Below are positions 1,850 to 46,629 of a DNA stretch of 64,000 nt, piece after piece. Source of the DNA: Plumapathes pennacea (Eukaryota > Cnidaria > Anthozoa > Antipatharia > Myriopathidae); assembly GCA_964036295.1 (NCBI GenBank), contig OZ038468.1:19622683-19686682 (forward strand), in the 5' to 3' direction. How positions within the stretch are numbered: the first letter of the stretch is position 1; every line of letters begins with the position of its first letter. The notes under the pieces are model-generated. The model was not told where the DNA came from. It searched no databases and saw only the letters and a list, made by a program, of their open reading frames with translations. A program made the translations under genes and the position numbers.

Positions 1850-1962
1850 TTAAACGTCGAAAAAATAACGTTGAAAAGACGTTGTATTCTGGTTGTCTGA
1901 CGTCGCGACCACGTTTCAACGAAATATCGACGTTGCGACAACGTCGAATGCCTGCTGGGTTA
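1850..1962. repeat. ACGTTG-rich short element, probably the remnant of a non-autonomous transposon
   Basis: Many copies of ACGTTG/CAACGT and of palindromes such as CGACGTTGCGACAACGTCG lie within about 110 bp, ending in TGCCTGCTGGGTTA. Dispersed elements with such ends and ACGTTG repeats are common in animal genomes. No matching left end was found nearby. It abuts the DUF229 homology, so it may have truncated that copy. Confidence 0.45.
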
Positions 1963-1965
1963 TAG

Positions 1966-2758
1966 AAAGACTGCACACAAGAAACTTCTTAAACAATACC
2001 ATGCTGGTCGTAATGAGTGACCACGGCTTTAGATATGGAGAAGCGAGGTTCACATTTCAAGGAAAGTTGGAAGCAAGGCTTCCATTCCTCTCCATTACAC
2101 TTCCACCGTGGTTTCGCAAAGAATACCCACATCTAGTGAGCAACTTAAAACGCAACACAAATCTTCTTGTTACTCCATTTGATCTTCATGCGACGCTGCA
2201 ACACATTCGTACCCTAAACTCCCCCAATATATGAAGTGGGGCAGAAGCTTCTTTGACGTCATACCAGAATCACGTGACTGCAGTACAGCTGGTGTACCTG
2301 AGCACTACTGCCCATGCGTGCGCTGGCAACCTGTAGATAAAGACCACTGATCAATCAGGCAGTCGGCTCAAACCGTGGTAACCCATATAAACTCACTGAC
2401 GTCATCAGATGCCGACGGCGTAAAGTTGTGCGCTCGTTTGGAACTTGCGGAAGTTACTAGCGGCTATCAGAAAATACCCAACGTTAACATGTTGCAATTT
2501 ATACGCGCCGCCGATCGACACAGAGTGGAAAAGTTTGCTGATGGTCCGGTGCCTATTGTGGACTGTATGTATCAAGTTCAGCTTCGTACTGTTCCCGGGA
2601 ATGTGGTGTTTGAAGTATCGGTCACCCACGTGAAAGATAAATTTGAAGTGGTTGGCGAACTGAGCAGGATTAATCTTTATGGAGATCAACCGAAGTGCAT
2701 CATCGACAAGAAACCATTTTTGAGGAAATACTGCTTCTGTAAAAATTTTCAACAGTGA
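1966..2758 (+). pseudogene. DUF229 family (sulfatase-like) C-terminal fragment, frameshifted and with an in-frame stop
   Basis: Translation gives RNFLNNTMLVVMSDHGFRYG, LPPWFRKEYP, TPFDLHATLQHI, then after a frame change PEHYCPCVRW and RINLYGDQPKCI...LRKYCFC. These are the order and motifs of the C-terminal half of DUF229 proteins (Pfam PF02995), a metazoan family related to sulfatases and alkaline phosphatases. MSDHG contains the DHG metal-site motif. The frame changes by one base at the C5 run 2221-2225, and a TGA at 2348-2350 interrupts the second frame, which is otherwise open to TAG... no later than the TGA at 2756-2758. The N-terminal catalytic half is absent: upstream lies an ACGTTG element and then the opposite-strand WIF gene. 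The 790 bp carries no intron, so a retrocopy or decayed fragment is likely. Sequencing error could explain the single-base shift but less easily the stop as well. Confidence 0.75.
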
Positions 2759-6362: not shown

Positions 6363-6768
6363 TAATGGCTACCGCTACAGGATTGCAAATAACTCTGTTG
6401 CCGCTAATTATTTATTAAATTTTTGATGTCGAAGCTCCGTGTCTTTCAAAGTGAAATACGTATATGTGCAACGAATACCTTGACCGCAAAGGCGGTAAAC
6501 AAATGAATCAGGAATTGGATTTTATATCATTGTTTAGTTTTAGTTTTATGATTTGTACTCGGAAGCCGTAGAAAAAAAAAGCAGCCGGGTGGATCACTGT
6601 GCGTATTTCTTGGCCAGGCGACGTACAACACATCTGTTTGGACAAAGGTTGACTTTCATAAATTTTTGCATTGAAATCTGTATATGGAGGTATTGAACGT
6701 GACCAGTCGGTCAAGGCTTTAACTGCCACAAGTGCGACAAATATGGCCTGCCAATCGTATAATCGAAC
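6363..6768. other. Unassigned sequence with one open minus-strand frame
   Basis: The minus-strand frame 6807-6508 reads through WQAIFVALVAVKALTDWSR and SIPPYTDFNAKIYESQPL. It looks protein-like, but no family is recognised and splice sites are not convincing. Its left part ends where the 172-bp unit begins at 6769. Confidence 0.2.
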
Positions 6769-6926
6769 TGGGGTTTTTAAACAAATTTTTTTCATCTCTG
6801 AATCCAACTCAAACAGAAAACAGGTAATTGAGCTAGTAACTGATAGAAATCTGCCCTTTGAATTTGAAAATGTGTTTTAATCTTGGAGATAATGATGGTC
6901 AAAGTTGGAGTTAGTTACAGGGTTTA
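6769..6926. repeat. Single copy of the 172-bp repeat unit found in tandem at 17.1-18.1 kb
   Basis: Shares TCTCTGAATCCAACTCAAAC, GAGCTAGTAACTGATAGAAA and CCCTTTGAATTTGAAAATG with each unit of the 17108-18090 array. It lies in what should be the intron upstream of the ERGIC1 exon at 7451. Confidence 0.85.
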
Positions 6927-7450: not shown

Positions 7451-8074
7451 CCATCTGGTTCAGGTACGACTAGTCCAATAACTGTCAAGCACACGGAAAG
7501 GCGGAAACCTCTGTATCACTTCATTACAACGGTATGTGTTATAGCACTCGTTATATGTTTCGGGATCGTGTTTGTACCTGTAACACACGTTCTTGTCCTG
7601 GCCCGTCTTTGTGAAAGAAAGATCGTAGTCTAATACTTTGTACGAATACATAATTATGTTTACGTAATCGTGTTTGTATTTTAATTTTGTTAGTTCGTGT
7701 AAATTTTAAAAGTGCTTGTGTGTTCCTGGTTGTCTACGCATAAGTTTTGTTAGGTAATTTTCACGTTTGTGTATTTGTGTACATGTAAGTGAACGTGTTC
7801 GTGTTCATGGTGTTCTTATTTGATTTACCTTTTCCATTTTCGTAAAATTAAAGTCCCGCGAAATTTTAGTTAAGAGTATTGACAAGGTGATTGTCCTAAT
7901 GTACAGTTACACTTCATTTGCTAGCGATAGACGTGTTAATAAAGAGCACCGTATGTTTCTTTCCAGGTTTGTGCCATCGTGGGTGTAACGTTTACAGTGG
8001 CAGGCATTATTGACTCTATGATCTTCACGGCCAGTGAAATCTTCAAGAAAGCCCAATTAGGAAAACTAAGCTAG
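7451..8074 (+). pseudogene. ERGIC1: ERGIC1, last two coding exons (detached 3' fragment)
   Basis: Exon 7451-7531 (acceptor TTTTTTAG, donor ACG|GTATGT) and exon 7967-8074 (acceptor TTTCCAG, stop TAG 8072-8074). The first begins CC ATC TGG TTC AGG TAC GAC (IWFRYD), then continues after loss of two bases at about 7471 as SPITVKHTERRKPLYHFITT. The second gives VCAIVGVTFTVAGIIDSMIF and ends TASEIFKKAQLGKLS. This is the C-terminus of ERGIC1 (ERGIC-32), a cargo-receptor subunit cycling between ER and Golgi; VGVTFTVAGIIDSMIF is its second transmembrane helix. No other ERGIC1 exon lies upstream; exons for the middle of the protein lie downstream at 14.1-16.9 kb. The two-base loss and the missing 5' part argue for a fragment, but an assembly indel and a misjoin could mimic both. 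Confidence 0.85.
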
Positions 8075-9230
8075 ATAACGGAAATATGTGCACTATTTTC
8101 TCTTGTGTTTAAGGAAACTTTCTTTGTCCAACATATTTGTGAACAGGTATACATGTGGTTTATGAACTGCCATGCGAAAATTAGACTATAGAATTGGCCG
8201 AATAAGATTAACTTGTCCACTCCCAAGCTTTAAAAATAGATTCTTCCAGCTTTATAAGAAGAAAATATATAAATGATGTAGTGAGAGTTTATGGTTTAGT
8301 CAGCTTTTATCTGAGCGATGTATGAAATACTGAGTCGCGAGGATCTGTTGGGGGGACATGTTGCCTCGTGTAACAGGACCTTTATGTTTAGTGTGACAGT
8401 TAATGAGTTTGATGTTTTTATGTTGGGTCAAATCCTGCGAAAAATGCTGTCAACTTTAGGCAAGCGACTGGTGTTTAACCGGCCTGTTTTGCATGGAGAA
8501 AAAAACCGTCATCTTGAAGTTTTGCGTGCTTTGATATTTATTCATGCAAAGTTATACATTGTTGAAATTTAATTCTCTATAGTTCAATAGCATAACTATT
8601 GATTACTGTGCGTTTTGCTCGCTAATTGCTAGTTAGGTTGAATTCTTGGTAGTGGGGTTTTGCATTAGCAAGGTGGGATTGATTGTGAAGCACGTTCATA
8701 ACACTGGATTATATTAAACGAATACACAAACCTCTTCACTGACCGCAAAGTTTATTGAGTTAATCAAAGGTTAACCCAATTTATTGTTCTAACAAACAAT
8801 GGTGGTTAGGATCTCTATGAACTAAGATTGAACAGAAATACGTCACGATAAAACCCATATTTGGCACTGGTCGTATGCCAGGTGACAACCCGCTTGGAGT
8901 CTCCAAATAGCGCGATACTACAGCATTAGCGTCGTGATTATTACCCTCACAGAGCTAGGGATCCCCCCTGCCTCCTCTGATATTTTTCCTCGTTGGGCAT
9001 TTCAGCCCAGGGTGAATGCCCCCTTGACTCCGGAAAGCTTAGCGGATTATGACGAAGGCGTAGAGGCAGATGTATACAGAAATAATATGGGCTTGGGAAA
9101 AAATGTCCACTCCTCCACCTCGGTTTTTGCTGTTAACCGGCCCCCCTCCTGAGTACCAAGCCCTCAAAGGAGATTGGAGAGGGAAAAATGCACTTTGCAC
9201 TTGACATGTATTGTCTTATTTTACTTTCAA
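8075..9230. other. No gene recognised
   Basis: Downstream flank of the ERGIC1 fragment. Open frames at 8318-8572 and 8934-9152 show no family motif or splice context. I see no clear repeat. Confidence 0.35.
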
Positions 9231-9420
9231 CAGGCGAAAGCAGTATGTTTATCGACTGTGAACCATTACCAATTTTGTCAATACAATGACGGCAGCAGTT
9301 TGGAATCACTAGCTACAGTGAAGTTGGTCAATTTCATGGGCTGATTATTTTATCGATGGCAATTAACTAAAAAATGTTGAAATCAATAAATAAAAACAAT
9401 TTGATGTCTAATTAAGCCGG
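9231..9420. repeat. Dispersed repeat, copy 1 (pair with 12109-12311)
   Basis: Shares TTTGGAATCACTAGCTACAG, AACCATTACCAAT and TTGATGTCTAATTAAGCC with 12109-12311 in the same orientation. The second copy has extra bases in the middle (AACATGAGATTTCTTT). Function unknown. Confidence 0.85.
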
Positions 9421-9545
9421 GTTATACAACTAACAGATTGTTGGGTAAAGCAAAGAGAAGAAAGATTGCGCGCAGTGTGGTGAATAGAGGTTTATACGGA
9501 ATTTAATACGTGCACAGTTATGTAGTTCACGGGTTATTTATTTAC

Positions 9546-9732
9546 CTGTTCAACAATCAATGCTACTCTACCCAGGGCAACACCGTACTCATCATCTCGA
9601 GTAACAACAGCGAAGCCAAGTTTTGCAATCACTTGCTTAAATCGCTTTAGTTTTTGTTCACAACAACCGGTCACGACACAGTGACTTACCACGTCTGATT
9701 CGCCCCAGATCTCTATCTGTTGGCCGAGGGCC
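9546..9732 (-). CDS. Unidentified coding exon
   Basis: On the minus strand the 187-bp interval has a good acceptor (TATTTTTCCCCAG) and donor (CAG|GTAAAT). It stays open in one frame for 62 codons, containing [20 protein letters not shown] and [20 protein letters not shown]. The composition looks like real protein (no low complexity). The alternation of hydrophobic stretches with a basic helix ([19 protein letters not shown]) faintly resembles a BRCT fold, but I do not recognise the family. Neighbouring exons were not found. An alternative acceptor is CCAACAG|ATAGAG, 17 bases further in. Confidence 0.4.
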
Positions 9733-10288
9733 CTGGGGAAAAATACTTGTGTGCTTCCCGCGGAATTTAAAACGCGAAGGCGCGCTATGAAAGGCCGTTG
9801 GCCCTGCCGTTTTCGACATCAAATTTGTATAATGTTTGTTGAGTCGCACGTGCGCCCACAGCATTCAGAAGTCGCGCTGTCCATGAAATTTCTCTGCAGC
9901 TTGGCGACTAAAAGTATACCTAAAATTAAACACATGCAGGTAACTTCAATGTGGAGTTCTGGACGGAAGGATTTGAAACGAAATTTTGCTCTTGGCTGCA
10001 TTTTGAATTTCGCGGTGCAATGCGACGCATGGCTGCGCACCAAGCATATTTAATTCTTGCTTTGAAGATTATTCTTGGATTTTACTCAAAATAAATGTTT
10101 ACGTGATGGAAAATTGGCGAGGCAACATTATCTTGTTTTGCGTGGTATTCAAGTGCAAGGAAAAACAAAATTTGGACATTTTGGCTTTTTACTAATTAGG
10201 ACCTGTTGTCTCGGTCGCTGTTGATTGACAAGTGGCTCTACGTTTCCCTGGGAAGTGCCCTTTTATAGTGCGCCCTCGTGTTTAGAAG
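9733..10288. other. No gene recognised
   Basis: Unique-looking sequence. The plus frame 9751-10053 and minus frame 10043-9819 overlap but neither shows a motif. Confidence 0.3.
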
Positions 10289-10331
10289 ATGTCGAGTATG
10301 CTCCTTCACAAACTCCTCCTCCTCAAGTCAG
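10289..10331 (+). CDS. Possible first exon (weak)
   Basis: An ATG opens a short leucine-rich frame (MSSMLLHKLLLLKS) that runs into a consensus donor CAG|GTAAGG. A TTTTATAG box lies about 25 bp upstream. It could be a signal-peptide exon, but no following exon could be assigned, so this is only a candidate. Confidence 0.18.
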
Positions 10332-10479
10332 GTAAGGTACACTATTATTTTATTGCAACACATCATACTTGATGTTGAGGGATATACACAAATTTAACGC
10401 CTGCAGTTTGTGTATGTGGTGTGTTGATACAAATATGGTGGTTCAACACGCTGCTTTCCAGTTTGACAGGGCTGCATGT

Positions 10480-10950
10480 TAGGCTTGGATAAATTATGCT
10501 CGTAAAATGGCGAATTATGCCTGCCGGCAGTGCTTGTAAAAACCGTGAATTATGCTCAAAATTATGCTCAGGGAGCAAAATTATCCTCGAACGACGCTCG
10601 GTACGAGTCTCGTCTCAGTCTCAGATTTCCGCGTATGGTTTCGCCCCCAGCCCTACGCGGCCGCTGGCTTTGAGGCGCGCTTTTATGTAATGCTGCTGAC
10701 TTTAAACTTCAGATCATGTGATGCGGGCGCGTTATAGCAGAGTTGGGTGAATCACAAGACTATATATTTTTAATTTGTTTTTAATTTGTTTTATTATTTT
10801 TTTCAGCTGTAATGCGTGTCTGTGTCTGCTGATTTCTTCAAATTATGCTCAAATTATGCTCAAAAATGAGGAATTTTGCTGGCATAATGCCCGATGCTTG
10901 AAGTGGTGAATTATGCTCGAAATTATGTCGGCATAATTTATCCAAGCCTA
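10480..10950. mobile_element. hAT-like MITE with perfect 8-bp target duplication
   Basis: Perfect 20-bp terminal inverted repeats TAGGCTTGGATAAATTATGC, flanked by CTGCATGT at 10472-10479 and 10951-10958. Length 471 bp. The interior repeats ATTATGCTC several times near each end, as subterminal repeats do in hAT elements. No transposase, so non-autonomous. The 8-bp duplication and TAG start support hAT. Confidence 0.85.
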
Positions 10951-11044
10951 CTGCATGTGTTGAGCATACATGGCCAGGTTTAAGGGCGATTAAGAGATCT
11001 TTTGACAGCTGTATGAAAAAGAGATAAAAACTACTGTAGAAATA

Positions 11045-11322
11045 ATGCATAGGTCAATTCCAGCTGTACCATCTCTCCCCCCCCCCCCCCCCCTCCCCCC
11101 TGGAAACCCTGGGGATTTTTCAGGCCTGGTTGCACCGGGGGGTGAGGAATTTGTGATAATTTGTGATAGGAATTGTAAAAAGTTAATAGGAAAAGAGTGG
11201 CAGATTTAGTTAAATTGCGAGTTTTTCTGTGCCCGGAGGCAGTGAATCTGTATCCACAGATAAAGTCACCGGGGTCAGCCTGGGGGAGAGATATGGTAAT
11301 AGCTGGAATTGACTGATGCATA
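11045..11322. mobile_element. Fold-back element with ~35-bp inverted ends and a C-tract
   Basis: GGTCAATTCCAGCTGTACCA at 11052 is mirrored by the complement of ATGGTAATAGCTGGAATTGAC ending at 11313, with CTCTCCCC on both arms. ATGCATA flanks both sides (11045-11051, 11316-11322). A C run of about 16 lies just inside the left arm. Confidence 0.65.
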
Positions 11323-11764
11323 ACTAGATTTTACCCTAGCTGAAGCACGTCGGTTACATACCTGCATGCATTGTGTCTTCAAACATCTTGTGTCTGCATG
11401 ACATTTTTAGCAGGCCTGATTGCATGCCTCACTACTGACACTAATGCCAGTTCACTTATGGGGTGGGGGTGGGGGGAAAGGGGATCGGTAGTTCAGAGGG
11501 GGTTGGTGTATGGTGACCATGCCCCAAGATCAAAACTAAGATTCTCGCTTTGGTTTCCATGACAGCAAGTCTCTTGTTCAAGGACCTTTGATCACTTAAC
11601 CTTCAAACCCTCTTACTGTGTGAGTATACAGAAATATTTGTTTGTAGCAGTTTGCCAGTTCAAGCTGCATTCATTAAAAAGAACAGAAAAGGGGAAGGTG
11701 GGGGATGGGATAGGGGTCAGGAGTGGAACCAGAATAATACCACCTCATTTACTTTTAAATATTA

Positions 11765-12480
11765 TATGCATAGAAAATATTTTGTCTTCTGAAATTACAT
11801 TTCTTGTATTTTGAGAGCATGTGTTTTAGTAAAATTTTCTATGAAATCTAAAGGTTTTATCGATGTTATATGCATAAAAAAATTCATTATCCATTTTGGA
11901 TTTTAAATATATATATAGCGCAGACATTCAAACCCCATTAGAGCTGATTTATTAAGTGAGATTTGCAAGAGCCAGAGGTAAGAACAGCTACGGGTGTCCG
12001 GGGGCTTCCTCCCCCAGAAAATTTTAAGATCTGTATCTTCTAAAATGCCATTCCCTGCATTTTGAGAATGTGTTTCAGTAAAATTTTCTATGAAATTTCA
12101 AGGCTTACAACGGGCAAAAGCGTTATGTTCATCGACTATGAACCATTACCAATATTGTCAATATAATGACAGCAGCAGTTTGGAATCACTAGCTACAGTG
12201 AAGTTGGTCAAAACATGAGATTTCTTTCATGGGTCGACTATTTTATTGACAGCAATGAACTAAAAATGTTGAAATCAATAAGTAAACGATTTGATGTCTA
12301 ATTAAGCCTGGAGATTAAGATTTGCGAGCGCTGGAGGCTCGAGCAGCTTTAGGGGGGTCCGGGGGCGTGGTCCTCCTGGAAAAGTTTAAGTTTTGCGTCT
12401 TATGAAAGAGCATTTCCTGCATTTTGAGAGCGTGATTCAGTAATATGTGCTGTGTAATCAGAAGGTTTCACCAACATAAA
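11765..12480. repeat. Three degenerate copies of a repeat around GTCCGGGGGC / CATTTTGAGA
   Basis: Blocks TGCATTTTGAGA.TGTG.TTCAGTAA..TT and AATTTTCTATGAAAT recur at about 11800, 12060 and 12420. Two copies carry a GTCCGGGGGC segment (11996, 12359). The dispersed repeat 12109-12311 sits between the second and third copies. Confidence 0.6.
12109..12311. repeat. Dispersed repeat, copy 2 (pair with 9231-9420)
   Basis: Direct repeat of 9231-9420, about 2.9 kb away. Confidence 0.85.
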
Positions 12481-13288
12481 ATGCATACTAAAATGAATAT
12501 TTGCTCTTAGTAGTGAACCTCCAGTTTCTTGAGCTTTGAAGGTGTTCACAAAAGTTTCCTTCCTTCAGGTCCTAAAGTTGAATGTCTGCACTTTGTATAT
12601 TTTTTAGTTAAAAATTGAATATTACATTTTCTATGTATAAAATGTTTATGAATATAAAGTGAGATGGGATTTTTCCACTTCATGGAAGTTGAAGAGTTAC
12701 GAAAATAGAAGTTAGCAAAGAAATGCTCAGAGGATATTACAGGTCTGTTTTAACTAACAGAATTAATATTTCAAAAAGTGGGGATTAATCTTTTGATTTG
12801 TCAGTCAGTCGACTTTGACTGATCACTGACGTAACATGGTTCTTGATAATAGGCAGGATGTTTTTTGTTGTAAGATACAGACTGTACTGTCATTTTAAAA
12901 TGTTTATTCTGATCTAACAGCAAACAATGTCAGAGTAAAGGGTGAGTCGAGAGTAACAAAGAGCAAAGAACTTCTTTGTTTGGAGTAAAGAAACGAAAAC
13001 AGCGTTTCATATTACAAATCAGCACAGCCACTTTACTAAAGTATCATATCAACTATCGTCGTCTATATATACACCCGTTCTATGCATATCAAGTTTTATT
13101 TGTTGCCTGTTTGGTGCATATTTGTTGCGGTTTGGACAGCTCTTGTGCGCGACAATTGGAAAGTCTCTTATAAATGTATTTATTGGTCGCTTCCAGATTT
13201 GCGTTTAGGAAAGCCGGCGGATACTGTAAATATTTGTTTTTGGAAATCTTTTGCAGATCTGATTTTAAGAGGTTCTGCCAAGGATGAA
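12481..13288. other. Upstream region of the TIG gene, no feature recognised
   Basis: AT-rich, with no recognised repeat. A TATATATA stretch at 13062-13071 lies about 220 bp upstream of the ATG at 13289 and could be part of its promoter; this is a guess. Confidence 0.25.
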
Positions 13289-13595
13289 ATGGCTTCGCTC
13301 ATAATCACTGTTCTATTTCTTGCGGCGGCTGCAATTGTGGAAGGTAAGTACCAAGCAGTTGACTAACTGTTCAAGTTTTGCTTAATACACAAGCCACATG
13401 TGGCCATCCAGTGATATTCGGCTACAATTCGATATGAGTTCGTGTTTAAAAGCACCCCGCACCTGGAACAAGCTTTGAAACGCTCGTCCGGCTGACATTA
13501 CACAATTTTCTCCTTTATAGGCGGACACGTCACCCATATAAGTCCAACGAGTGGAAGCAAAGCGGGCGCAACTCGATTGACTATCTTTGGAGAAG
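13289..13595 (+). CDS. PKHD1L1: Fibrocystin-L-like protein, first two coding exons (signal peptide and start of a TIG domain)
   Basis: Exon 13289-13343 encodes MASLIITVLFLAAAAIVE, a clear signal peptide, and ends in a consensus donor GAAG|GTAAGT. Exon 13521-13595 (acceptor TTTATAG, donor GAAG|GTAAGG) continues in phase as GGHVTHISPTSGSKAGATRL then TIFGEG. The pattern V..ISP..GS..G.TRLTI.G.GF is the start of an IPT/TIG domain, and a signal peptide directly followed by such a domain is how fibrocystin-L (PKHD1L1) begins. Other TIG receptors are possible. The next exon was not found: ERGIC1 exons begin at 14069, so the gene is either cut here or has ERGIC1 sequence inside its intron. Confidence 0.6.
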
Positions 13596-14068
13596 GTAAG
13601 GATCGAAAATACTGACAAGGACCCCAGGGTTATTATGGCGCACATTGAGGGATTTGTAAGATTCAATATTCGGAATACGCGCTTAACTACTGAAGTGCAA
13701 TAGCATCTTTCATACCGGCTTGACTTATGCGGTTCTCGAGTTTTCTTGGGCAGTTTTTTTGGTGGTTACCTTTGGACCGGGAGTGGCACTGTGACGGTTT
13801 TTCCAAATCACCGCTAAATCTTCCCAGAAGACAGCCGTCATTACGAGACAGCCAGCATGTATTCCAGACATTGCGTAACTCCAAACAAAACTTTGGCTTC
13901 AACTTTTGTTCTAGCCTTTCTCTTCTGAACCTTGGACATTCGTTGATGATAAACTCTCCATCTCTATTATCTTCCTTTTTGACATCCAATTTTGGGCTAA
14001 ATGCACTATAGCGAGGATTCCCAGCAGGGACATTATTCGCATACTTCAGACTATTTGTTCAGTTGTAG
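13596..14068. other. Interval between the TIG exons and the ERGIC1 exons
   Basis: Long open frames exist on both strands (plus 13727-14011, minus 13989-13687), but neither shows a recognised motif. A junction between PKHD1L1-like and ERGIC1 sequence should lie in this interval if the two were joined by rearrangement. Confidence 0.3.
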
Positions 14069-16868
14069 GACTGGATATTCAAGATGAAATGGGAAGGTAA
14101 ACTTTTCTCTATTGTGTTTTCAAAATAAATGGATGAGTAATATAGTGAAAATTAGTGCAGTGTTGCAGCTTAATGCATTTGAGACTTTATATTCCATAGC
14201 TTAGTTTTAGATGGTATTGTAGTGGTGTGTGCAAAGGTTTGTACAGTCATGTGTGAGGGTGATGTCTTTTGTAGTTACTTATATCTGACTGTGTGTATTT
14301 TTAGACATGAAGTTGGTTTCAATGAAAACACTGACAAACAAGAAATAAATGGTGGAGGTACTGTATCAACAGCATTAAAGACTGTTAGCATTATAATATA
14401 AAATTATTCAGTTTATGTTGACATCATGTATTCTAAAATAGTTGAGAAACTTCATCATCTGCGGTGTAATTTTGTGACACATTTGTCAGTGAGCACTTAA
14501 GGTCACTCCAGAGTTTCATCGGGCGCACTCCTCCATTACAAGCTTTGGATCATAATTTTTTGGGTTTAATGTGATTCCTATGAAACTATGAAACTCGTTC
14601 AGCAATAATGTGGTAGAATTACACCCAGTGAAATTGGTATATTTTTGTGTATTATCGGCTGTTTGTGTACTGTACATCACTAATGCATATTTTCTGGAAT
14701 ATTTTTGTTTTTCATTTTCCTCATTCAGATGGCTGTATCTTCACTGCAGTTTTCTCTGTTAACAAGGTAATCATGGTTTGAAAGCTCTTCAGTTTGACTG
14801 CTTGTCTTGAAGGTCCTTGGATTTATAACACACTGTCATGCAGTAACACACTGTTAATGCTCTTATAAGGCCCCCCTCTACAAATGCAATATTTTTTTAA
14901 ACAAGGCCTCCCCCTTCCTCTCATTTTCATTTCACTAAGTGTCTTCTTCAGTCTTACTTGAGATATATCACACTATACATTATCTTCACTATAGGTTCCT
15001 GGAAATTTTACATTTCTACACACGGAGCTGGACAGCAGGTACATACTTACATACAGTGACTGTTGCATATTAATTATTTATTATATAGACACGAGTGTTT
15101 TACTGGAAAATATACCGTGCGTAAAATCCATACGAAACTACATCCGGGACCTGAGTGGCGTATTTTCCATATCCTCACTAATGAGGATATCGTTTGCGTC
15201 ATTTCCCGCTTTTGCAAGGTTGTTTGTGCAATTTCTCGTAAAACACTCGTGTCTAATATAATAAAAAGAAAATTACACGGCGGCTTGAAGATATGGATTT
15301 TATTTTCTCGTGGTAAAAACAATATTTTACTCACTCGCGAAGCGCTCGTTCGTAAAATATTGTTTTACCACTCGAAAATAAAATTCATATCTTTGCGCCG
15401 CCGTGTAATATCCTCTATTTATGTAACTGTATGCTGTCAGGGAGTTTTAATTAAACAATTTCACAAAACTACCTCAGCATCATTACTAAACGTCAAGCTT
15501 TACAGGAGCAATGTAATTGGTAGATCTCTTACGGTAAACAAGCTCATTTTCGCTTTCAGAGTCTGTGTATTCACTTTTTGTTTTGATCTTCAACTCTAGT
15601 GTTAATGAGGCACAAATTATTTACAAATCACACGTTTTGTATCTTAACCCTTTGTTGTCGTTTTTTTCAGCCTTCTAATCCAGACATGAGTCAGTCAATA
15701 AACTCAGTACACTTTGGATCAGAAATTAAGGTACATGTATAACTTTACAGCACTCTTTGTGTTAGTTCTGGTCGGATGTCCCAGGGACTGCCACAGCAGC
15801 CTCATTCTAAATATTTACTTTTTTCTTTTTTCAAGGATAAGATTCCTGGTGCTTTCAATGCTCTTAAAAATCTTAGCAGAGAACATGAAAACAGTAGGTT
15901 TTTCTTCCGTTTCATTATCACTTCAGTCTATCTTATCTCCTCTTTCCCATTCTGCATTCGTCCTCTTTTTCTTCTTTCTTTAGTTTCATTTGTCAATCAT
16001 TCATTCTCTCTTGTATTCTAACTTTACTTTAGGTCTCTCATCCCATGATTACGTTATTAAGATTGTCCCAACCATCTTTGAGAGGTTGAATAGAAGTACT
16101 GCTTTCTCATATCAATATACATGGGCATATAAGGTAAGATCACTCTGAAATAAAGAAAAAAGAGCCAAAACAGACCCGTTGGCAGATGACTGTCATAATT
16201 GATCGTGTGATTGCTTTGGTTTTGTGGTTTTGTTATGCTTATAAGCAATGCAAAACCAAAACAATCACTCGTTTAATTTCAACAGTTCACGAAAACGGCT
16301 CTATTCTCAAGCAAGAATTCACTCTAGCTCAATCAATCAGGAACAAAACATCCAAACTTTGATCTTTTCATACAAGCAAGTGGCAATGGCGCTTTCTCGC
16401 ACTCCTAAATTTGGGCCAGGTAGTGGTGAAACGGAGCTTGTTTTGATTGATTTTCATAAAATCAAAGGCAAAATACGAACAGCATGAGTCATAAAGGCTG
16501 TGAAGAACAGCTTCAAATAACTTGAAGCCAAACTAATTTTAGCAATCTGGTTTTACTTTTAAGAAGGAAGTCCAATCAGCAGTGCGAGGAAACGCCATCA
16601 CCACATACTTGCTGCATAAAGACAAAGATCGCAGTTTATTTCGTTTTGTTACTGATTGACTTAGCATGGTGCAAAGTTGTCTGGACCAGTCAGAAACCGT
16701 AGTAAACACAAAAACAAAACTAAGAACAAAATTAGTTTCGACAGTCATCTGAAATCTGCGCTACTAAGTGAGTCATTGCTGAATTGGGCCATGTGTTGAT
16801 ATTTCATGGTGCTCTTGTTTGTCACCAGGATTACATTTCCTATGACAACGGGGGCAACGTCATGCCAG
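14069..16868 (+). CDS. ERGIC1: ERGIC1, eight consecutive middle exons (5' and 3' ends missing)
   Basis: Exons: 14069-14096 (LDIQDEMG), 14305-14357 (HEVGFNENTDKQEINGG), 14729-14766 (GCIFTAVFSVNK), 14995-15038 (VPGNF then HISTHGAGQQ), 15671-15730 (PSNPDMSQSINSVHFGSEIK), 15836-15893 (DKIPGAFNALKNLSREHEN), 16033-16133 (SSHDYVIKIVPTIFERLN), 16829-16868 (DYISYDNGGNVMP). All junctions have AG/GT and matching phases. This is the lumenal core of ERGIC1, which works with the other ERGIC/Erv proteins in ER-Golgi cargo traffic. Exon 14995-15038 is one base short: a C is missing after 15009 in the codon for His. Exons for roughly the first 75-80 residues (cytosolic N-terminus, first membrane helix) are not found upstream. 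The exon that should follow 16868, starting CC ATC TGG, is found only at 7451, upstream. Confidence 0.88.
15083..15260. mobile_element. MITE with ~22-bp inverted ends, in an ERGIC1 intron
   Basis: AGACACGAGTGTTTTAC at the left is mirrored by GTAAAACACTCGTGTCT at the right, ending 15260. An inner palindrome ATATCCTCACTAATGAGGATAT lies at 15167-15190. Confidence 0.75.
15272..15409. mobile_element. Fold-back MITE, almost a perfect palindrome
   Basis: The two ~58-bp arms (ATTACACGGCGGC ... AACAATATTTTAC and complement) enclose a short loop CTCGCGAAGCGCTCG. The whole 138 bp could form one long hairpin. It begins 11 bp after the MITE at 15083-15260. Confidence 0.85.
16150..16750. repeat. Intronic repeat region with a TTGGTTTTG hairpin
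   Basis: GTGATTGCTTTGGTTTTG (16207-16224) pairs with CAAAACCAAAACAATCAC (16251-16268). Further on, GGCGCTTTCTCGCACT (16388) and AGTGCGAGGAAACGCC (16579) are also inverted relative to each other. Probably one or two decayed inverted-repeat elements in the ERGIC1 intron 16134-16828. Confidence 0.5.
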
Positions 16869-17107
16869 GTAAAGTGCATTCACTCCCAAGAGTAATCAAG
16901 TACAATTCTCTCTTTTCAGTCTCCAACCAGAGATATATATACAGTATGGAGAATTCGGCATTTGATACTTTGTTACAATGACGGTTGATTACAACATTAA
17001 TTCTCGTTTCATCACTCGTACATTTTCTTATTTTAGGTATGGGAGAATTTGTATTTTGAGCTTGAGAGTGAAAGGGTTAACCACCACAAGCAAACTTCTT
17101 GTACTAA

Positions 17108-18090
17108 AGCCCCAGGCTCCTTAGAGGTTTTCAAACCAAATTTTTTTAGTCTCTGAATCCAACTCAAACATAGAAAATAGGAACTTGAGCTAGTAACTGA
17201 TAGAAATCTGCCCTTTGAATTTGAAAATATGTTTTAATCTTGGAGAAAACGACGGTCAAAGTTGCAATTAGTTAGGGGAGACCAGCCTAGACTGGCTCCT
17301 GGGATTTTAAATTTAAAATTTTGTGGTCTCTAAATCCATCTTGATTGCAGAAAATAGGAACTTCAGCTAGTAAAATTGATAGAAATCTACCCTTTGAATT
17401 CGAAAATAATGTTTTAACTTTGGAGAAAACGAATGTTAAATTTAGAGGTCAACAGGATTAGACCCTTTTTTCATCTCTGAATCCAACATGAACACAAAAA
17501 GTAGGTTACCTAAGCTAGTAACTGATAGAAATCTGCCCTTTGAACTTGAAAATGTATTTTAATCTTGGAGAAGACGACAGTCAAAGTGGGAGTTAGTTAG
17601 GGTTTAAGACCCAGGCTCCTGGGGTTTTCAAACCAATTTTTTTAGTCTCTGAATCCAACTCAAACACAGAAAACAGCTAACTGAGCTAGTAACTGATAGC
17701 AATATGCCCTTTGAATTTGAAAATGTATTTTAATCTTGTAGAAAACAACAGTCAAAGTTGGACTTAGTTAGGGTTTAAGACCCAGGCTCCTGGGGTTTAT
17801 AAACCAATTTTTTTCATCTCTGAATCCAACTCAAACACAGAAAACAGGTAATTGAGCTAGTAGTTGATAGAAATATGCGCTTTGAATTTGAAAATGTATT
17901 TTAATATTGGAGAAAACGACAGTCAAAATTGGAGTTAGTTAGGGTTTAAGACCCAGGCTCCTAGGGTTTTTAAACCAAACATTTTTCATCTCTGAATCCA
18001 ACTCAAACACAGAAAACAGGTAATTGAGCTAGTAACTGATAGAAATCTGCCCTTTGAATTTGAAAATATGTTTTAATCTGAGAAAACAAT
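17108..18090. repeat. 172-bp tandem repeat, six units
   Basis: The TCTGAATCC landmark (once TCTAAATCC) recurs at 17152, 17329, 17476, 17648, 17819 and 17991, giving spacings 177, 147, 172, 171 and 172. Units share GAGCTAGTAACTGATAGAAA and CCAGGCTCCTGGGGTTT. The array follows the last ERGIC1 exon of this block by about 240 bp, in its downstream intron. Confidence 0.92.
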
Positions 18091-18284
18091 GGGCGTTGCT
18101 AAACAGCGAAACGAAACAACGAAACAGCAAAACAGTTTCAAAATCTTAAATTTTAAAAAGAAAGGCAAAACAACATAAACCACAAATCGAGAATGGCGAA
18201 GAATGAGAACGCCTCGAGCACCAACATGGATCCAACTATAAACGCACGTAGGTTGTTCAAGCTGTTATGTCCCACAGATTCGAA

Positions 18285-18765: not shown

Positions 18766-19849
18766 CTATGTACAGCCTTTGTCAATCATTAGATTCGCAT
18801 ACAAGTTTCAGGGAATATTTCTGAATGTTTCACAAGTGTGGTGATATACAAGATAAGATTCTATCTAAATCGATCGGGGTGCAATGAGACTTTAAACTTT
18901 GCATACCAGTCCGCCTTTTCCGGTCAAAGTTACAATAAAATTAATCTTTTCGGCATTCGCAAAAGCGAACTACAGCCCGGTCATTGATTAGCTTCGTATG
19001 AACGTTTCAGGGAATATTTCTAAATGCTTTAAGAATGTGCTGATAGGCAATGTATTATCATATCTAAATTGAACTGCGAGAGATCAGACTTCAAACTTTA
19101 CATACTAAACCGCCATTTCCGGTCAAATTTATAGAAAATTGAATTTTTTGGCTCTTCGTAAAAATTATGTACAGCCTCGGTTAATCATTGGTTTCGCAAA
19201 ACAGTTTCAGGGAATGTTTCTGAATGTTTCTCAGGTGTGCTGATGTGCACTGTGTGATTGTATCTAAATCGATCTGCGAGTAATCAGACTTCAAATTTCG
19301 CATACCAAACCACCATTTCTGGTCAAGTTTATAGAAAATTGAATTTTTTCAATTTTTTCGTAAAAATGATGTACAACCTTTGTCAATTATTAGATTCGCA
19401 TACAAGTTTCAGGGAATGTTTCTCAGGTGTGCTGATGTGCACTATATGATTGTATCTTAATTGATCTGCGAGTAAACAAACTTCAAACTTTCCCTACCAC
19501 AACGCCATTTCTTGTTAAAGTTGAAATAGAATCAATTTCTTCCTCGTTCGCAAGAGCGATCTACAGCCTCGGTCAATGATTAGATTCGCATGAAAGTTTT
19601 AGGAAATTTTTTTAAAGATTTTACAAATGTGCTGATATGTAGGGTATTTATATATCTAAATCGATCTGCTAGTAATCAGACTTCAAACTTCGCATACCAA
19701 ACCACCATTTCCGGTCAAGTTTATAGAAAATTGAATTTTTTGGCTCTTCGTAAAAACGATGTTCGGCCTCGGTTCATCATTAGATTCGCATGATCGTTTC
19801 AGCGAACGTTTGTGAATGTCGCATAAGTGTGCTAATGTTCACTGTATGA

Positions 19850-22800
19850 TTGTATCTAAATCGATCTGTGAGTAATCAGACTTCAAACTTCGCATACCAA
19901 ACCGCCATTTCTGGTCAAGTTTATAGAAAATTGAATTTTCTGGTTTTTCGTAAAAATGATGTACAACCTTTGTCAATCATTAGATTCGCATACATGTTTC
20001 AGGGAATGTTTCTGAATGTTTCACAAATGTGCTGATATGCAGTGTATTTTTATATCTAAATCGATCTGCGAGTAATCAGACTTCAAATTTCGCATACCAA
20101 ACCGCCATTTCCGGTCACGTTTATAGAAAACTGAATTTTTTGGGCTCTTCGTAAAAACGATGTACAGCCTTTGTCAATCTTTTGATTCGCATACGAGTTT
20201 CAGGGAATGTTTCTGAATGTTTCTCAGGTGTGCTGAGGTGCACTGTATGATTGTATCTAAATCTTTCTGCGATTAATCAGACTTCAAACTTCGCATACAA
20301 AACCACCATTTCTGGTCAAGTTTATAGAAAATTGAATTTTTTTGCTATTCGTAGAAACGTTGTAAAGACTTTGTCAATCATTAGATTCGCATACAAGTTT
20401 CAAGGAATGTTTCTGACTGTTTCACAAATGTGATGATATGCAGTGTATTTTTATATCTAAATCGATCTGCGAGTAATCAGACTTCAAATTTCGCATACCA
20501 AACCGCCATTTCCGGTCACGTTTATAGAAAACTGAATTTTTTGGCTCTTCGTAAAAACGATGTACAGCCTTTGTCAATCTTTTGATTCGCATACAACTTT
20601 CAGGGAATGTTTCTGAATGTTTCTCACGTGTGCTGAGGTGCACTGCATGATTTTATTTAAATCGATCTGCGAGTAAACAGACTTCAAACTTTGCATACCA
20701 CTCCGCATTTTCCGGTCAAAGTTACAATAAAATCCATCTCTTCTTCGTTACCAAGAGCGATCTACAGCTTCGGTCAATGATTAGATTCACATGAAAGTTT
20801 AAGGAAACATTTCTAACTATCTTACAAATGTGTTGAGAGGGAGTGTATTTTGATATCTAAATAGATATGCGAGTAATCAGACTTCAAACTTTCCATACCA
20901 AACCGCTATTTCCCTTCAAGTTTTTAGAAAATTGAATTTTTTGGCTCTTCGTAAAAACGATGTTCGGCCTCGGTTAACCATTAGATTCGCATCATCGTTT
21001 CAGCGAACGTTTGTTAATGTCTTACAAGTGTGCTGATGTGCACTGTATGATTTTATCTAAATCGATCTGCGAGTAATCAGACTTCAAACTTCGCATACCA
21101 AACCACCATTTCTGGTCAAGTTTATAGAAAATTGAATTTTTTTGCTATTCGTAAAAACGTTCTACAACCTTTGTCAATCGTTAGATTCGCATACAAGTTT
21201 CAGGGAATGTTTCTGAATGTTTCACAAGTGTGTTGATAGGCGCGTTAAGATTCTATCTAAATTGACCGGGGTGTAATCAGACTTCAAACTTTGCATACCA
21301 GAACGCCATTAAGTTGCAATAGAATCAATTTCTTCCTCGTTCTCAAGAGCAATCTACAGTCTCGGTCAATGATTAGATTCGCATGAAAATTTTAGGGAAT
21401 ATTTCTAAAGATTTTACAAATGTCCTGATATGTAGGGTATTTATATATCTAAATCGATCTGCGAGTATTCAGACTTCAAACTTCGCATACCAAACCGCCA
21501 TTTCCGGTCAAGTTTATAGAAAATTGAATTTTTTGGCTTTTCGTAAAAATGATGTACAGCCTCGGTTAATCATTAGTTTCGCATAAACGTTTCAGGGAAC
21601 GTTTCTGAATGTTTCAAAAGTGTGGTGATATGCACGATAAGATTCTATCTAAATTGACCGGCGAGTAACCAGACTTCAAACTTTCCATACCACAATGCTA
21701 TTTCTGTTCAAGTTTATAGAAAATTGAATTTTTTTGGCTTTTCTTGAAAAATGATGTACAGCCTCGGTTAATCATTAGTTTCGCATACCAGTTTCAGGGA
21801 ATTTTTCTAAATGTTTCTCACGTGTTCTGATGAGCACTGTATGATTGTATCTAAATCGATCTGCGAGTAAACAGACTTCAAACTTTGGACACCACTCGGC
21901 CTTTTCCGGTCAAAGTTAAAATAAAATCAATCTCTTCTTCGTTCCGAACAGCGATCTACAGCTTCGGTCAATGATTAGATTCGCATGAAAGTTTTAGGGA
22001 ACATTTCTAAAGATTTTACAAATGTGCTGATATGAAGGGTATTTATATATCTAAATTGATCTGGGAGTAATCAGACTTCAAACTTCGTATACCAAACCGC
22101 TATTTCCGGGCAAGTTTATAGAAAATTGAATTTTTTGGTTTTTCGTAAAAATGATGTACAGCCTCGGTTAATCATTAGTTTCGCATACAAGTTTCAGGGA
22201 ATGTTTCTGAATGTTTCACAAGTGTGGTGATATGCACAATAAGATTCTATCTAAATTGACCGGCGAGTAATCAAACTTCAAACTTTCCAATAAAATCAAT
22301 CTTTTCTTCGTTCCCAAGAGCAATCTACAGCTTCGGTCAATAATTAGATTCGCATGAAAGTTTTAGGGAACATTTCTGACTATCTTACAGATGTGCTGAT
22401 AGGCAGTGTATTTTGATATCTAAACCGATCTCCGAGTAATCAGACTTTAAACTTTGCATACCAAACCGCCATTTCCGGTCAAGTTTATAGAAAATTGAAT
22501 TTTTTGGTTTTTTTCTAAAAATGATGTACAAACTCGGTTAATCATTAGTTTCGCATGCAAGTTTCAGGGAATGTTTGTGAATGTTTGACAAGTGTGGTGA
22601 TATGCACGATAAAATTCTATCTAAATTGACCGGCGAGTAATCAGACTTCAAACTTTCCATACCACAACGCCATTTCCGGTCAAGTTTATAGAAAATTGAA
22701 TTTTTTGGCTCTTCGTAAAAATGATGTACAGCCTCGGTTAATTATTGGCTTCGCATAACAGTTTCAGGGAGTGTTTCTGAATGTTTCCCAGGTGTGCTGA

Positions 22801-25800
22801 TGTGCACTGTATGATTGTATCTAAATCGATCTGCAAGTAATCAGACTTCAAATTTCGCATACCAAACCGCCATTTCTGGTCAAGTTTATAGAAAATTGAA
22901 TTTTCTGGTTTTTCGTAAAAATGATGTACAACCTTTGTCAATCATTAGATTCGCATACATGTTTCAGGGAATGTTTCTGAATGTTTCACAAATGTGCTGA
23001 TATGCAGTGTATTTTTATATCTAAATCGATCTGCGAGTAATCAGACTTCAAATTTCGCATACCAAACCGCCATTTCCGGTCACGTTTATAGAAAACTGAA
23101 TTTTTTGGGCTCTTCGTAAAAACGATGTACAGCCTTTGTCAATCTTTTGATTCGCATACGAGTTTCAGGGAATGTTTCTGAATGTTTCTCAGGTGTGCTG
23201 AGGTGCACTGTATGATTGTATCTAAATCTTTCTGCGATTAATCAGACTTCAAACTTCGCATACAAAACCACCATTTCTGGTCAAGTTTATAGAAAATTGA
23301 ATTTTTTTGCTATTCGTAGAAACGTTGTAAAGACTTTGTCAATCATTAGATTCGCATACAAGTTTCAAGGAATGTTTCTGACTGTTTCACAAATGTGATG
23401 ATATGCAGTGTATTTTTATATCTAAATCGATCTGCGAGTAATCAGACTTCAAATTTCGCATACCAAACCGCCATTTCCGGTCACGTTTATAGAAAACTGA
23501 ATTTTTTGGCTCTTCGTAAAAACGATGTACAGCCTTTGTCAATCTTTTGATTCGCATACAACTTTCAGGGAATGTTTCTGAATGTTTCTCACGTGTGCTG
23601 AGGTGCACTGCATGATTTTATTTAAATCGATCTGCGAGTAAACAGACTTCAAACTTTGCATACCACTCCGCATTTTCCGGTCAAAGTTACAATAAAATCC
23701 ATCTCTTCTTCGTTACCAAGAGCGATCTACAGCTTCGGTCAATGATTAGATTCACATGAAAGTTTAAGGAAACATTTCTAACTATCTTACAAATGTGTTG
23801 AGAGGGAGTGTATTTTGATATCTAAATAGATATGCGAGTAATCAGACTTCAAACTTTCCATACCAAACCGCTATTTCCCTTCAAGTTTTTAGAAAATTGA
23901 ATTTTTTGGCTCTTCGTAAAAACGATGTTCGGCCTCGGTTAACCATTAGATTCGCATCATCGTTTCAGCGAACGTTTGTTAATGTCTTACAAGTGTGCTG
24001 ATGTGCACTGTATGATTTTATCTAAATCGATCTGCGAGTAATCAGACTTCAAACTTCGCATACCAAACCACCATTTCTGGTCAAGTTTATAGAAAATTGA
24101 ATTTTTTTGCTATTCGTAAAAACGTTCTACAACCTTTGTCAATCGTTAGATTCGCATACAAGTTTCAGGGAATGTTTCTGAATGTTTCACAAGTGTGTTG
24201 ATAGGCGCGTTAAGATTCTATCTAAATTGACCGGGGTGTAATCAGACTTCAAACTTTGCATACCAGAACGCCATTAAGTTGCAATAGAATCAATTTCTTC
24301 CTCGTTCTCAAGAGCAATCTACAGTCTCGGTCAATGATTAGATTCGCATGAAAATTTTAGGGAATATTTCTAAAGATTTTACAAATGTCCTGATATGTAG
24401 GGTATTTATATATCTAAATCGACTACTGCGAGTATTCAGACTTCAAACTTCGCATACCAAACCGCCATTTCCGGTCAAGTTTATAGAAAATTGAATTTTT
24501 TGGTTTTTCGTAAAAATGATGTACAGCCTCGGTTAATCATTAGTTTCGCATAAACGTTTCAGGGAACGTTTCTGAATGTTTCAAAAGTGTGGTGATATGC
24601 ACGATAAGATTCTATCTAAATTGACCGGCGAGTAACCAGACTTCAAACTTTCCATACCACAATGCCATTTCTGTTCAAGTTTATAGAAAATTGAATTTTT
24701 TTGGCTTTTCTTGAAAAATGATGTACAGCCTCGGTTAATCATTAGTTTCGCATACCAGTTTCAGGGAATTTTTCTAAATGTTTCTCACGTGTTCTGATGA
24801 GCACTGTATGATTGTATCTAAATCGATCTGCGAGTAAACAGACTTCAAACTTTGGACACCACTCGGCCTTTTCCGGTCAAAGTTAAAATAAAATCAATCT
24901 CTTCTTCGTTCCGAACAGCGATCTACAGCTTCGGTCAATGATTAGATTCGCATGAAAGTTTTAGGGAACATTTCTAAAGATTTTACAAATGTGCTGATAT
25001 GAAGGGTATTTATATATCTAAATTGATCTGGGAGTAATCAGACTTCAAACTTCGTATACCAAACCGCTATTTCCGGGCAAGTTTATAGAAAATTGAATTT
25101 TTTGGTTTTTCGTAAAAATGATGTACAGCCTCGGTTAATCATTAGTTTCGCATACAAGTTTCAGGGAATGTTTCTGAATGTTTCACAAGTGTGGTGATAT
25201 GCACAATAAGATTCTATCTAAATTGACCGGCGAGTAATCAAACTTCAAACTTTCCAATAAAATCAATCTTTTCTTCGTTCCCAAGAGCAATCTACAGCTT
25301 CGGTCAATAATTAGATTCGCATGAAAGTTTTAGGGAACATTTCTGACTATCTTACAGATGTGCTGATAGGCAGTGTATTTTGATATCTAAACCGATCTCC
25401 GAGTAATCAGACTTTAAACTTTGCATACCAAACCGCCATTTCCGGTCAAGTTTATAGAAAATTGAATTTTTTGGTTTTTTTCTAAAAATGATGTACAAAC
25501 TCGGTTAATCATTAGTTTCGCATGCAAGTTTCAGGGAATGTTTGTGAATGTTTGACAAGTGTGGTGATATGCACGATAAAATTCTATCTAAATTGACCGG
25601 CGAGTAATCAGACTTCAAACTTTCCATACCACAACGCCATTTCCGGTCAAGTTTATAGAAAATTGAATTTTTTGGCTCTTCGTAAAAATGATGTACAGCC
25701 TCGGTTAATTATTGGCTTCGCATAACAGTTTCAGGGAGTGTTTCTGAATGTTTCCCAGGTGTGCTGATGTGCACTGTATGATTGTATCTAAATCGATCTG

Positions 25801-31800: not shown

Positions 31801-33317
31801 ATTTTCTGGTTTTTCGTAAAAATGATGTACAACCTTTGTCAATCATTAGATTCGCATACATGTTTCAGGGAATGTTTCTGAATGTTTCACAAATGTGCTG
31901 ATATGCAGTGTATTTTTATATCTAAATCGATCTGCGAGTAATCAGACTTCAAATTTCGCATACCAAACCGCCATTTCCGGTCACGTTTATAGAAAACTGA
32001 ATTTTTTGGGCTCTTCGTAAAAACGATGTACAGCCTTTGTCAATCTTTTGATTCGCATACGAGTTTCAGGGAATGTTTCTGAATGTTTCTCAGGTGTGCT
32101 GAGGTGCACTGTATGATTGTATCTAAATCTTTCTGCGATTAATCAGACTTCAAACTTCGCATACAAAACCACCATTTCTGGTCAAGTTTATAGAAAATTG
32201 AATTTTTTTGCTATTCGTAGAAACGTTGTAAAGACTTTGTCAATCATTAGATTCGCATACAAGTTTCAAGGAATGTTTCTGACTGTTTCACAAATGTGAT
32301 GATATGCAGTGTATTTTTATATCTAAATCGATCTGCGAGTAATCAGACTTCAAATTTCGCATACCAAACCGCCATTTCCGGTCACGTTTATAGAAAACTG
32401 AATTTTTTGGCTCTTCGTAAAAACGATGTACAGCCTTTGTCAATCTTTTGATTCGCATACAACTTTCAGGGAATGTTTCTGAATGTTTCTCACGTGTGCT
32501 GAGGTGCACTGCATGATTTTATTTAAATCGATCTGCGAGTAAACAGACTTCAAACTTTGCATACCACTCCGCATTTTCCGGTCAAAGTTACAATAAAATC
32601 CATCTCTTCTTCGTTACCAAGAGCGATCTACAGCTTCGGTCAATGATTAGATTCACATGAAAGTTTAAGGAAACATTTCTAACTATCTTACAAATGTGTT
32701 GAGAGGGAGTGTATTTTGATATCTAAATAGATATGCGAGTAATCAGACTTCAAACTTTCCATACCAAACCGCTATTTCCCTTCAAGTTTTTAGAAAATTG
32801 AATTTTTTGGCTCTTCGTAAAAACGATGTTCGGCCTCGGTTAACCATTAGATTCGCATCATCGTTTCAGCGAACGTTTGTTAATGTCTTACAAGTGTGCT
32901 GATGTGCACTGTATGATTTTATCTAAATCGATCTGCGAGTAATCAGACTTCAAACTTCGCATACCAAACCACCATTTCTGGTCAAGTTTATAGAAAATTG
33001 AATTTTTTTGCTATTCGTAAAAACGTTCTACAACCTTTGTCAATCGTTAGATTCGCATACAAGTTTCAGGGAATGTTTCTGAATGTTTCACAAGTGTGTT
33101 GATAGGCGCGTTAAGATTCTATCTAAATTGACCGGGGTGTAATCAGACTTCAAACTTTGCATACCAGAACGCCATTAAGTTGCAATAGAATCAATTTCTT
33201 CCTCGTTCTCAAGAGCAATCTACAGTCTCGGTCAATGATTAGATTCGCATGAAAATTTTAGGGAATATTTCTAAAGATTTTACAAATGTCCTGATATGTA
33301 GGGTATTTATATATCTA
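19850..33317 (+). repeat. 2,967-bp higher-order repeat (15 monomers), 4.5 nearly identical copies
   Basis: Anchors at 19850, 22815, 25782, 28749 and 31716 are 2,965, 2,967, 2,967 and 2,967 bp apart. Copies differ by only a few bases, e.g. T or C at 25708/28675. The first copy lacks a 2-base change (GATCTGCG becomes GACTACTGCG) present in all later ones, and its first ~45 bp are more diverged. The fifth copy stops at 33317, where it joins another position of the same repeat. Confidence 0.95.
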
Positions 33318-45740: not shown

Positions 45741-45838
45741 AATAGATCTGCGAGTAATCAGACTTCAAACTTTGCTTACCAAACCCCTATTTCCCTTCAA
45801 GTTTTTAGAAAATTGAATTTTTTGGCTCTTCGTAAAAA
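45741..45838 (+). repeat. Half monomer of the ~200-bp satellite, last in forward orientation
   Basis: Continues the monomer broken at 43988 (GATCTGCGAGTAATCAGACT ... GGCTCTTCGTAAAAAC) and ends at the inversion point. Confidence 0.9.
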
Positions 45839-46629
45839 CATTTTGTGGAACATTCAAAAACATTCCCTGAAACATGTAAGCGAATCTAATGATTGACAAA
45901 GGTTGTACATCATTTTTACGAAAAACCAGAAAATTCAATTTTCTATAAACTTGACCAGAAATGGCGGTTTGGTATGCAAAGTTTGAAGTCTGATTACTCG
46001 CAGATCGGTTTAGATATCAAAATATACTCCCTATCAGCACATCTCTAAGATAGTTAGAAACGTTCCCTAAAACTTTCATGCGAATCTAATTATTGACCGA
46101 AGCTGTAGATCTGTCTTGGGAACGAAGAAGAGATTGATTTTATTCTAACTTTGACCGGAAAAGGCGGAGTAGTGTGCAAAGTTTGAAGTCTGTTCACTCG
46201 CAGATCGATTTAGATACAATCATACAGTACTCATCAGAACACCTGAGAAACATTCAGAAACATTCCCTGAAACTGGTATGCGAAACTAATGATTAGCCGA
46301 GGCTGTACATCATTTTTACGAAGAGCCCAAAAAATTCAATTTTCTATAAACTTGATCGGAAATGGTGGTTTGGTATGCGAAGTTTGAAGTCTGATTACTA
46401 GCAGATCGATTTAGATATATAAATACCCTACATATCAGCACATTTGTAAAATCTTTAGAAATATTCCCTAAAACTTTCATGCAAATCTAATCATTGACCG
46501 AGGCTGTAGATCGCTCTTCCGAACGAGAAAGAAATTGATTCTATTGCAACTTTGACAAGAAATGGCGTTGTGGTATGGAAAGTTTGAAGTCTGATTACAC
46601 GCCGGTCAATTTAGATAAAATCTTATCGC

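What the first reader, a model, noticed from the sequence alone, without database searches (positions are those of the whole stretch)
7451..16868. ERGIC1 is present in two pieces in the wrong order
The exon ending at 16868 stops one base into a codon (CCA G), and the exon at 7451 starts CC ATC TGG, which completes GCC for the conserved Ala before IWFRYD. They are consecutive ERGIC1 exons by phase and protein order, yet the later exons lie about 6 kb upstream of the first middle exon and on the same strand. No second copy of either set is visible. Possible causes are a tandem duplication with reciprocal losses, a translocation of the gene tail, or an assembly misjoin. If real, the gene here is broken unless its missing parts lie outside the window.
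Basis: partly seen in the sequence, partly recalled or inferred. Interest (0 to 1): 0.75.

Follow-up and report, generated by a model that had tools for sequence, protein, structure and literature searches.

The report
Scrambled dead ERGIC1 copy beside satellite
An animal genome carries a piece of the ERGIC1 transport gene with its end placed before its middle, but both parts are already broken by small deletions, so it looks like a dead, rearranged copy next to repetitive DNA rather than a working gene cut in two.

Summary
No convincing match to residues 1-79 was found in the window. (1) Both pieces are frameshifted: exon 14995-15038 changes frame after VPGNF, exon 7451-7531 after IWFRYD, with an in-frame TAG. 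(2) A 171-bp repeat occurs at only two places in the window: an array just after exon 16868 (17107-18092) and one copy just before exon 7451 (6768-6926). The outer ends are therefore probably halves of one intron, and the block a circular permutation. (3) Around it lie truncated gene pieces (a broken DUF229 end, a TIG-like gene head) and about 39 kb of 200-bp satellite. Most likely this is a dead duplicated ERGIC1 fragment, opened inside an intron and inserted beside satellite, with a working ERGIC1 elsewhere (inferred). A misjoin cannot be excluded: neither reads nor the genome were held. Permuted duplications via circular intermediates are already described (PMC7450558), so interest is low.

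The parts
14050..16868 (+). Middle part of ERGIC1: 8 exons (14050-14096, 14305-14357, 14729-14766, 14995-15038, 15671-15730, 15836-15893, 16033-16133, 16829-16868), human residues ~80-226
   Evidence: tblastn for 5 of the 8 exons, the other 3 by reading; AG/GT at each junction; Pfam COPIIcoated_ERV E 6.8e-8, profile 94-166 of 227, for the part after the frameshift; the 52 residues before it matched no family
14995..15038 (+). Frameshifted middle exon: 44 nt, VPGNF in one frame and ISTHGAGQQ in another; the following exons follow the second frame
   Evidence: exon lengths and three-frame translation
7451..7531 (+). First tail exon of ERGIC1, frameshifted: IWFRYD then TAG in frame; SPITVKHTERRKPLYHFITT in another frame
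   Evidence: (hits in frames 1 and 2)
7967..8074 (+). Last exon of ERGIC1 with its stop codon
   Evidence: tblastn E 6e-11; tail piece matches COPIIcoated_ERV profile 192-227 of 227, E 7.6e-9
17107..18092 (+). 171-bp tandem repeat array in the intron just after exon 16868, about 5.8 units, last unit cut short
6768..6926 (+). One nearly full 171-bp unit, 524 bp before exon 7451
   Evidence: found by a profile built only from five right-hand copies, E 6.9e-45; 76-91% identical to right-hand copies
13289..13595 (+). Head of another gene: signal-peptide-like exon (13289-13343) and start of a TIG/IPT-like domain (13521-13595), then cut off; likeness to PKHD1L1 is recalled
   Evidence: reading frames; TIG E 0.021, below Pfam cut-off; weak plexin and HGF receptor matches, E 0.73 and 0.86
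13596..14049 (+). Stretch in which the inferred junction between the downstream end and the ERGIC1 middle must lie, if the TIG head belongs to the block
   Evidence: inference from the flanking exons
1962..2757 (+). 3' end of a DUF229 gene, broken by a frame change near 2226-2233 and a TGA at 2348
   Evidence: PF02995 E 1.5e-31 (profile 321-408) and 1.2e-13 (423-495 of 496) in two frames; stop positions
18768..59261 (.). 200-bp satellite arrays in both orientations, interrupted at about 44.0-45.8 kb

Best explanation
The block 6.77-18.09 kb is a non-functional duplicated fragment of the ERGIC1 locus in permuted order, lying at the edge of satellite DNA. The ancestral order was ERGIC1 middle exons - intron with a 171-bp repeat array - last two exons - downstream DNA, possibly including the start of a TIG-domain gene. 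The fragment's ends were joined (ERGIC1 upstream intron to the TIG gene's intron, between 13.60 and 14.05 kb), as in a DNA circle or a tandem repeat. It was then opened inside the repeat array and now runs array-tail-downstream-middle-array. Shown: order, phase, two frameshifts, and the repeat at the two outer ends and nowhere else in the window. Inferred: the joining and opening steps, and that a working ERGIC1 lies elsewhere.
For: The two pieces are consecutive, with no overlap and no exon missing between them. The 171-bp unit occurs only at the two outer ends: 7 of 7 profile hits at E<=1, both strands, whole window (6 right, 1 left). Both pieces are frameshifted. A satellite ruler argues against base errors: at an offset of 2,967 bases, 17 of 17 500-base windows from 21800 to 30300 are 99.8-100% identical with no shift of register, so no net indel. 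At 3e-4 indels per base (about the highest rate this allows, my estimate) two or more in 631 coding bases have P 0.016; at 1e-4, P 0.002. A DUF229 piece nearby is broken in two ways.
Against: No parent locus, reads or relatives could be examined. The array ends do not abut exactly: the right end stops at profile position 147 and the left copy starts at 14, so about 37 of 171 bases are unaccounted for; circle junctions described in human show only 1-27 bp (PMC7450558 Results). The 171-bp unit could be a dispersed repeat. The ruler is local and may owe its identity to recent copying: outside it, 3 of 5 HOR comparisons had 5 to 16 gaps, 3 of 11 comparisons in the 338-bp array had two 1-base gaps each, and 11 of 66 spacings in the second 200-bp array were not 200; I take these as older divergence. 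Splice sites are all intact, which a long-dead copy need not keep.
Confidence: 0.5

Rival explanations
1. Assembly misjoin: a contig end with the ERGIC1 tail and one with the ERGIC1 middle plus satellite were joined in the wrong order, and the gene itself is continuous.
For: Satellite starts within 0.7 kb of the ERGIC1 block, a usual place for misjoins (recalled); a repeat shared by both outer ends; gene heads and tails cut at several points.
Against: No Ns; the shared array is only about 1 kb, which long reads would span (the read type is not known); a misjoin does not explain frameshifts in both pieces and in DUF229.
Confidence: 0.27
2. Tandem duplication of a segment from an ERGIC1 intron to the TIG gene's second intron, with later loss of the outer halves.
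For: The inferred junction (downstream end to middle, 13.60-14.05 kb) is what a tandem duplication gives (inference).
Against: Needs two further losses that both stop inside the same 171-bp array; no other exons of either copy found in the window.
Confidence: 0.13
3. This is the species' only ERGIC1, broken by a rearrangement: a true loss of the gene.
For: No second copy in the window; splice sites still intact.
Against: No genome to check. By recall ERGIC1 is widely conserved in animals, and dead duplicates beside satellite are commoner than loss.
Confidence: 0.05
4. Gene pieces with introns carried by a mobile element such as a Helitron.
For: Pieces of two or three genes side by side in the same orientation.
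Against: No Rep, helicase or transposase family in six frames of 1-18.6 kb with stops as X. This is weak: the same scans also missed the ERGIC1, TIG and WIF exons. Element ends were not searched for.
Confidence: 0.05

Closest known systems
Permuted segmental duplications attributed to circular DNA intermediates (Chicote et al. 2020, PMC7450558; abstract, section list and Results section read)
   Same: Two blocks kept in orientation but swapped in order, with the outer ends being neighbours in the parent locus; some derivative copies are pseudogenes.
   Different: Those are human, with ancestral sizes of 22-3918 kb and a known parent locus; here the block is about 11 kb, the parent is not available, and the opening point lies in a tandem array with about 37 bases unaccounted for.
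Patchworks of truncated gene duplicates beside satellite, as in human pericentromeric regions (recalled)
   Same: Several gene fragments with introns, cut and in part disabled, close to large satellite arrays.
   Different: That the satellite here is centromeric was not shown; duplicate and parent were not compared.
ERGIC1/ERV41 family (Pfam COPIIcoated_ERV)
   Same: Exons, phases and residues ~80-290 of the protein.
   Different: No first exons found, order reversed, two frameshifts.

Membership tests
ERGIC1 (as source gene) | Sequence match along the protein | tested here: met
   tblastn to human ERGIC1, better than to ERGIC3 for the tail (E 6e-11 vs 4.8e-6); Pfam PF07970 in the tail and in the larger part of the middle, none in the first 52 residues of the middle; no PDB match for two pieces
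ERGIC1 (as working gene) | Open reading frame in exon order with N-terminal exons | tested here: not met
   Order reversed, residues 1-79 not found, frameshifts in exons 14995-15038 and 7451-7531
Circle-mediated permuted duplication | Blocks swapped in order, same orientation, complementary | tested here: met
   (for exon order; the parent itself was not seen)
Circle-mediated permuted duplication | Outer ends adjacent in the parent, loss or gain of only short sequence | tested here: inconclusive
   Both ends lie in the same 171-bp repeat but about 37 of 171 bases do not abut
Circle-mediated permuted duplication | Intact parent locus elsewhere | not testable with these tools
   no genome held
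Pericentromeric duplicate patchwork | Several truncated gene pieces, disabled, beside large satellite | tested here: met
   DUF229 and ERGIC1 pieces disabled; the TIG-like head is truncated but shows no damage in its 44 residues; satellite from 18.77 kb
Pericentromeric duplicate patchwork | Satellite is centromeric | not testable with these tools
   needs chromosome position or CENP-A mapping
Helitron or other gene-capturing element | Transposase or helicase domain | tested here: inconclusive
   None in six frames of 1-18.6 kb, but these scans also missed known short exons
Helitron or other gene-capturing element | Element ends | not tested
   not searched for

The most novel reading that the evidence does not exclude
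A small gene-bearing DNA circle from the ERGIC1 locus of an invertebrate was opened inside an intronic tandem array and reinserted at the edge of satellite DNA, so that short tandem arrays act as the opening point.
Probability: 0.2. Interest if true: 0.4.

Novelty: new member of a known kind. Interest (0 to 1): 0.2.

Why it matters
It turns an apparently broken, conserved gene into a probable dead duplicate and warns against calling ERGIC1 lost or split in this species. If the circular history holds, it would be a compact case of permuted duplication whose joints could be read at base level once the parent locus is found.

Tried and rejected
Species identification: no genome is held for the window; a satellite motif was not found in viral contigs. 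Relatives: the ERGIC1 tail was sought in genome contigs only (135 pattern matches, none a relative) and the later part of the middle in viral contigs only (5 pattern matches, none a relative). I take the source to be an invertebrate animal by recall only. Rfam and tRNA scans of the window gave nothing. PDB searches with two ERGIC1 pieces gave no hits. Paper searches, seen as listings: ERGIC1+pseudogene (13 papers, 10 listed, none relevant by title); ERGIC1+cnidaria; ERGIC1+coral (irrelevant by title); satellite, centromere and patchwork searches (12 papers, one on DNA markers of a coral, PMC9005458, not opened). Rejected: alternative splicing as a rescue of the frames, because the frame changes lie inside exons, between conserved residues (argument, not a computation). 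One search used one exon end that was one base too long (14767) and therefore seemed to keep the frame in the middle piece; one search corrects it. The GAPT match (E 0.053, below cut-off) was taken as chance.

Full report
Observation. Of the eight middle exons, five gave tblastn rows (E 0.004, 1.3, 2.3, 0.037 and 4e-7); the other three were read from the translation, in order and between good splice sites. The same search gave no row at E<=0.05 in 20 of 20 resampled versions of 1-18768, against six such rows in the window. Exon ends are AG...GT throughout (10 of 10 acceptors, 9 of 9 donors; the last exon ends with its stop). The tail and the later part of the middle match Pfam COPIIcoated_ERV (profile 192-227 and 94-166 of 227); the first 52 residues of the middle matched nothing. 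No convincing match to residues 1-79 and no second copy was found in the window.

Both pieces are dead as they stand. Exon 14995-15038 has 44 bases, and the protein changes frame between VPGNF and ISTHGAGQQ. Exon 7451-7531 changes frame after IWFRYD, with an in-frame TAG there. Base errors are a less likely cause. In the same contig, satellite copies 2,967 bases apart agree at 99.8-100% with no shift of register in 17 of 17 500-base windows from 21800 to 30300. An indel rate of 3e-4 per base, about the most that this allows by my estimate, gives P 0.016 for two or more indels in 631 coding bases; 1e-4 gives 0.002 (its exon set was one base too long). Against this, the ruler is local. Outside it, three of five 2,967-base comparisons had 5 to 16 gaps, three of eleven in the 338-bp array had two 1-base gaps each, and 11 of 66 monomer spacings in the second 200-bp array differ from 200. 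I read these as older divergence, not errors, but cannot prove it.

The link between the pieces. A 171-bp repeat forms an array at 17107-18092, starting 239 bases after exon 16868, and one almost complete unit lies at 6768-6926, 524 bases before exon 7451. A profile made only from five right-hand copies finds the left copy at E 6.9e-45 and nothing outside these two places in the 64 kb (7 hits at E<=1, six right and one left). The simplest reading is that both are parts of the single intron that once joined the two exons. The block 6.77-18.09 kb is then a circular permutation: array-tail-downstream-middle-array. The outer ends do not meet exactly (right end at profile position 147, left start at 14), so about 37 bases of a unit are unaccounted for. 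This is weak evidence either way, and the unit could also be a dispersed repeat.

Surroundings. At 1962-2757 lies the 3' end of a DUF229 gene, matched in two frames (profile 321-408, E 1.5e-31; 423-495, E 1.2e-13) and with a TGA at 2348. At 13289-13595 lie a signal-peptide-like exon and the first 23 residues of a TIG-like domain (TIG E 0.021, under the Pfam cut-off); it is cut short but shows no damage, and its likeness to PKHD1L1 is recalled, not tested. From 18.77 kb on, the window is mostly 200-bp satellite in both orientations to 59.26 kb, with an interruption at about 44.0-45.8 kb, and then a 338-bp array from 59.9 kb. Repeats at 4.0-6.3 kb recur in that interruption. Cut and disabled gene pieces beside large satellite are what is seen, by recall, in pericentromeric duplicate patchworks.

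Mechanism. I hold most likely (0.5) that a duplicated ERGIC1 segment, closed on itself between an upstream ERGIC1 intron and the TIG gene's intron (joint at 13.60-14.05 kb), was opened within the repeat array and ended up here, then decayed. Chicote et al. (PMC7450558; abstract and Results read) describe human duplications with just this change of block order and propose circular intermediates. Their resolved junctions lose or gain only 1-27 bp, and the parent is known; here neither can be tested. A misjoin (0.27) is the main rival, tandem duplication with two losses (0.13) the next.

Verdict. Probably a real but ordinary kind of thing: a dead, permuted gene fragment next to satellite. It should not be read as a split working ERGIC1.

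Noticed in passing
window 330-685, - strand: Head of a WIF-domain gene: a signal-peptide-like exon and a second exon (joined pieces match WIF at E 5.4e-5, just below the Pfam cut-off), both open; recalled to resemble RYK.
   Followed up: partly
window 18768-59261: 200-bp satellite in opposite orientations on either side of about 45.8 kb, with 2,967-bp higher-order copies 99.8-100% identical over about 21.8-33.3 kb.
   Followed up: partly
window 59895-64000: A second satellite with a 338-bp unit, 96% matches; 59.3-59.9 kb seems, by eye, to carry related sequence in the opposite orientation.
   Followed up: no
window 44245-45676 and 4029-6349: Dispersed repeat family present at both places, 78-92% identical; at 44.3-45.6 kb it is a tandem pair of about 635 bp, 92% identical.
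   Followed up: no
window 18285-18765: Inverted-repeat element (76-nt arms, 95%) enclosing a second, smaller inverted-repeat element at about 18506-18696, right at the satellite edge.
   Followed up: no
window 4838-5395: 193-bp tandem array, 2.9 copies, between two copies of a 0.43-kb direct repeat at 94%.
   Followed up: no
window 9224-9421 and 12104-12311: Direct repeat pair, 83% identical over about 200 bp, within the stretch between the ERGIC1 tail and the TIG-like head.
   Followed up: no
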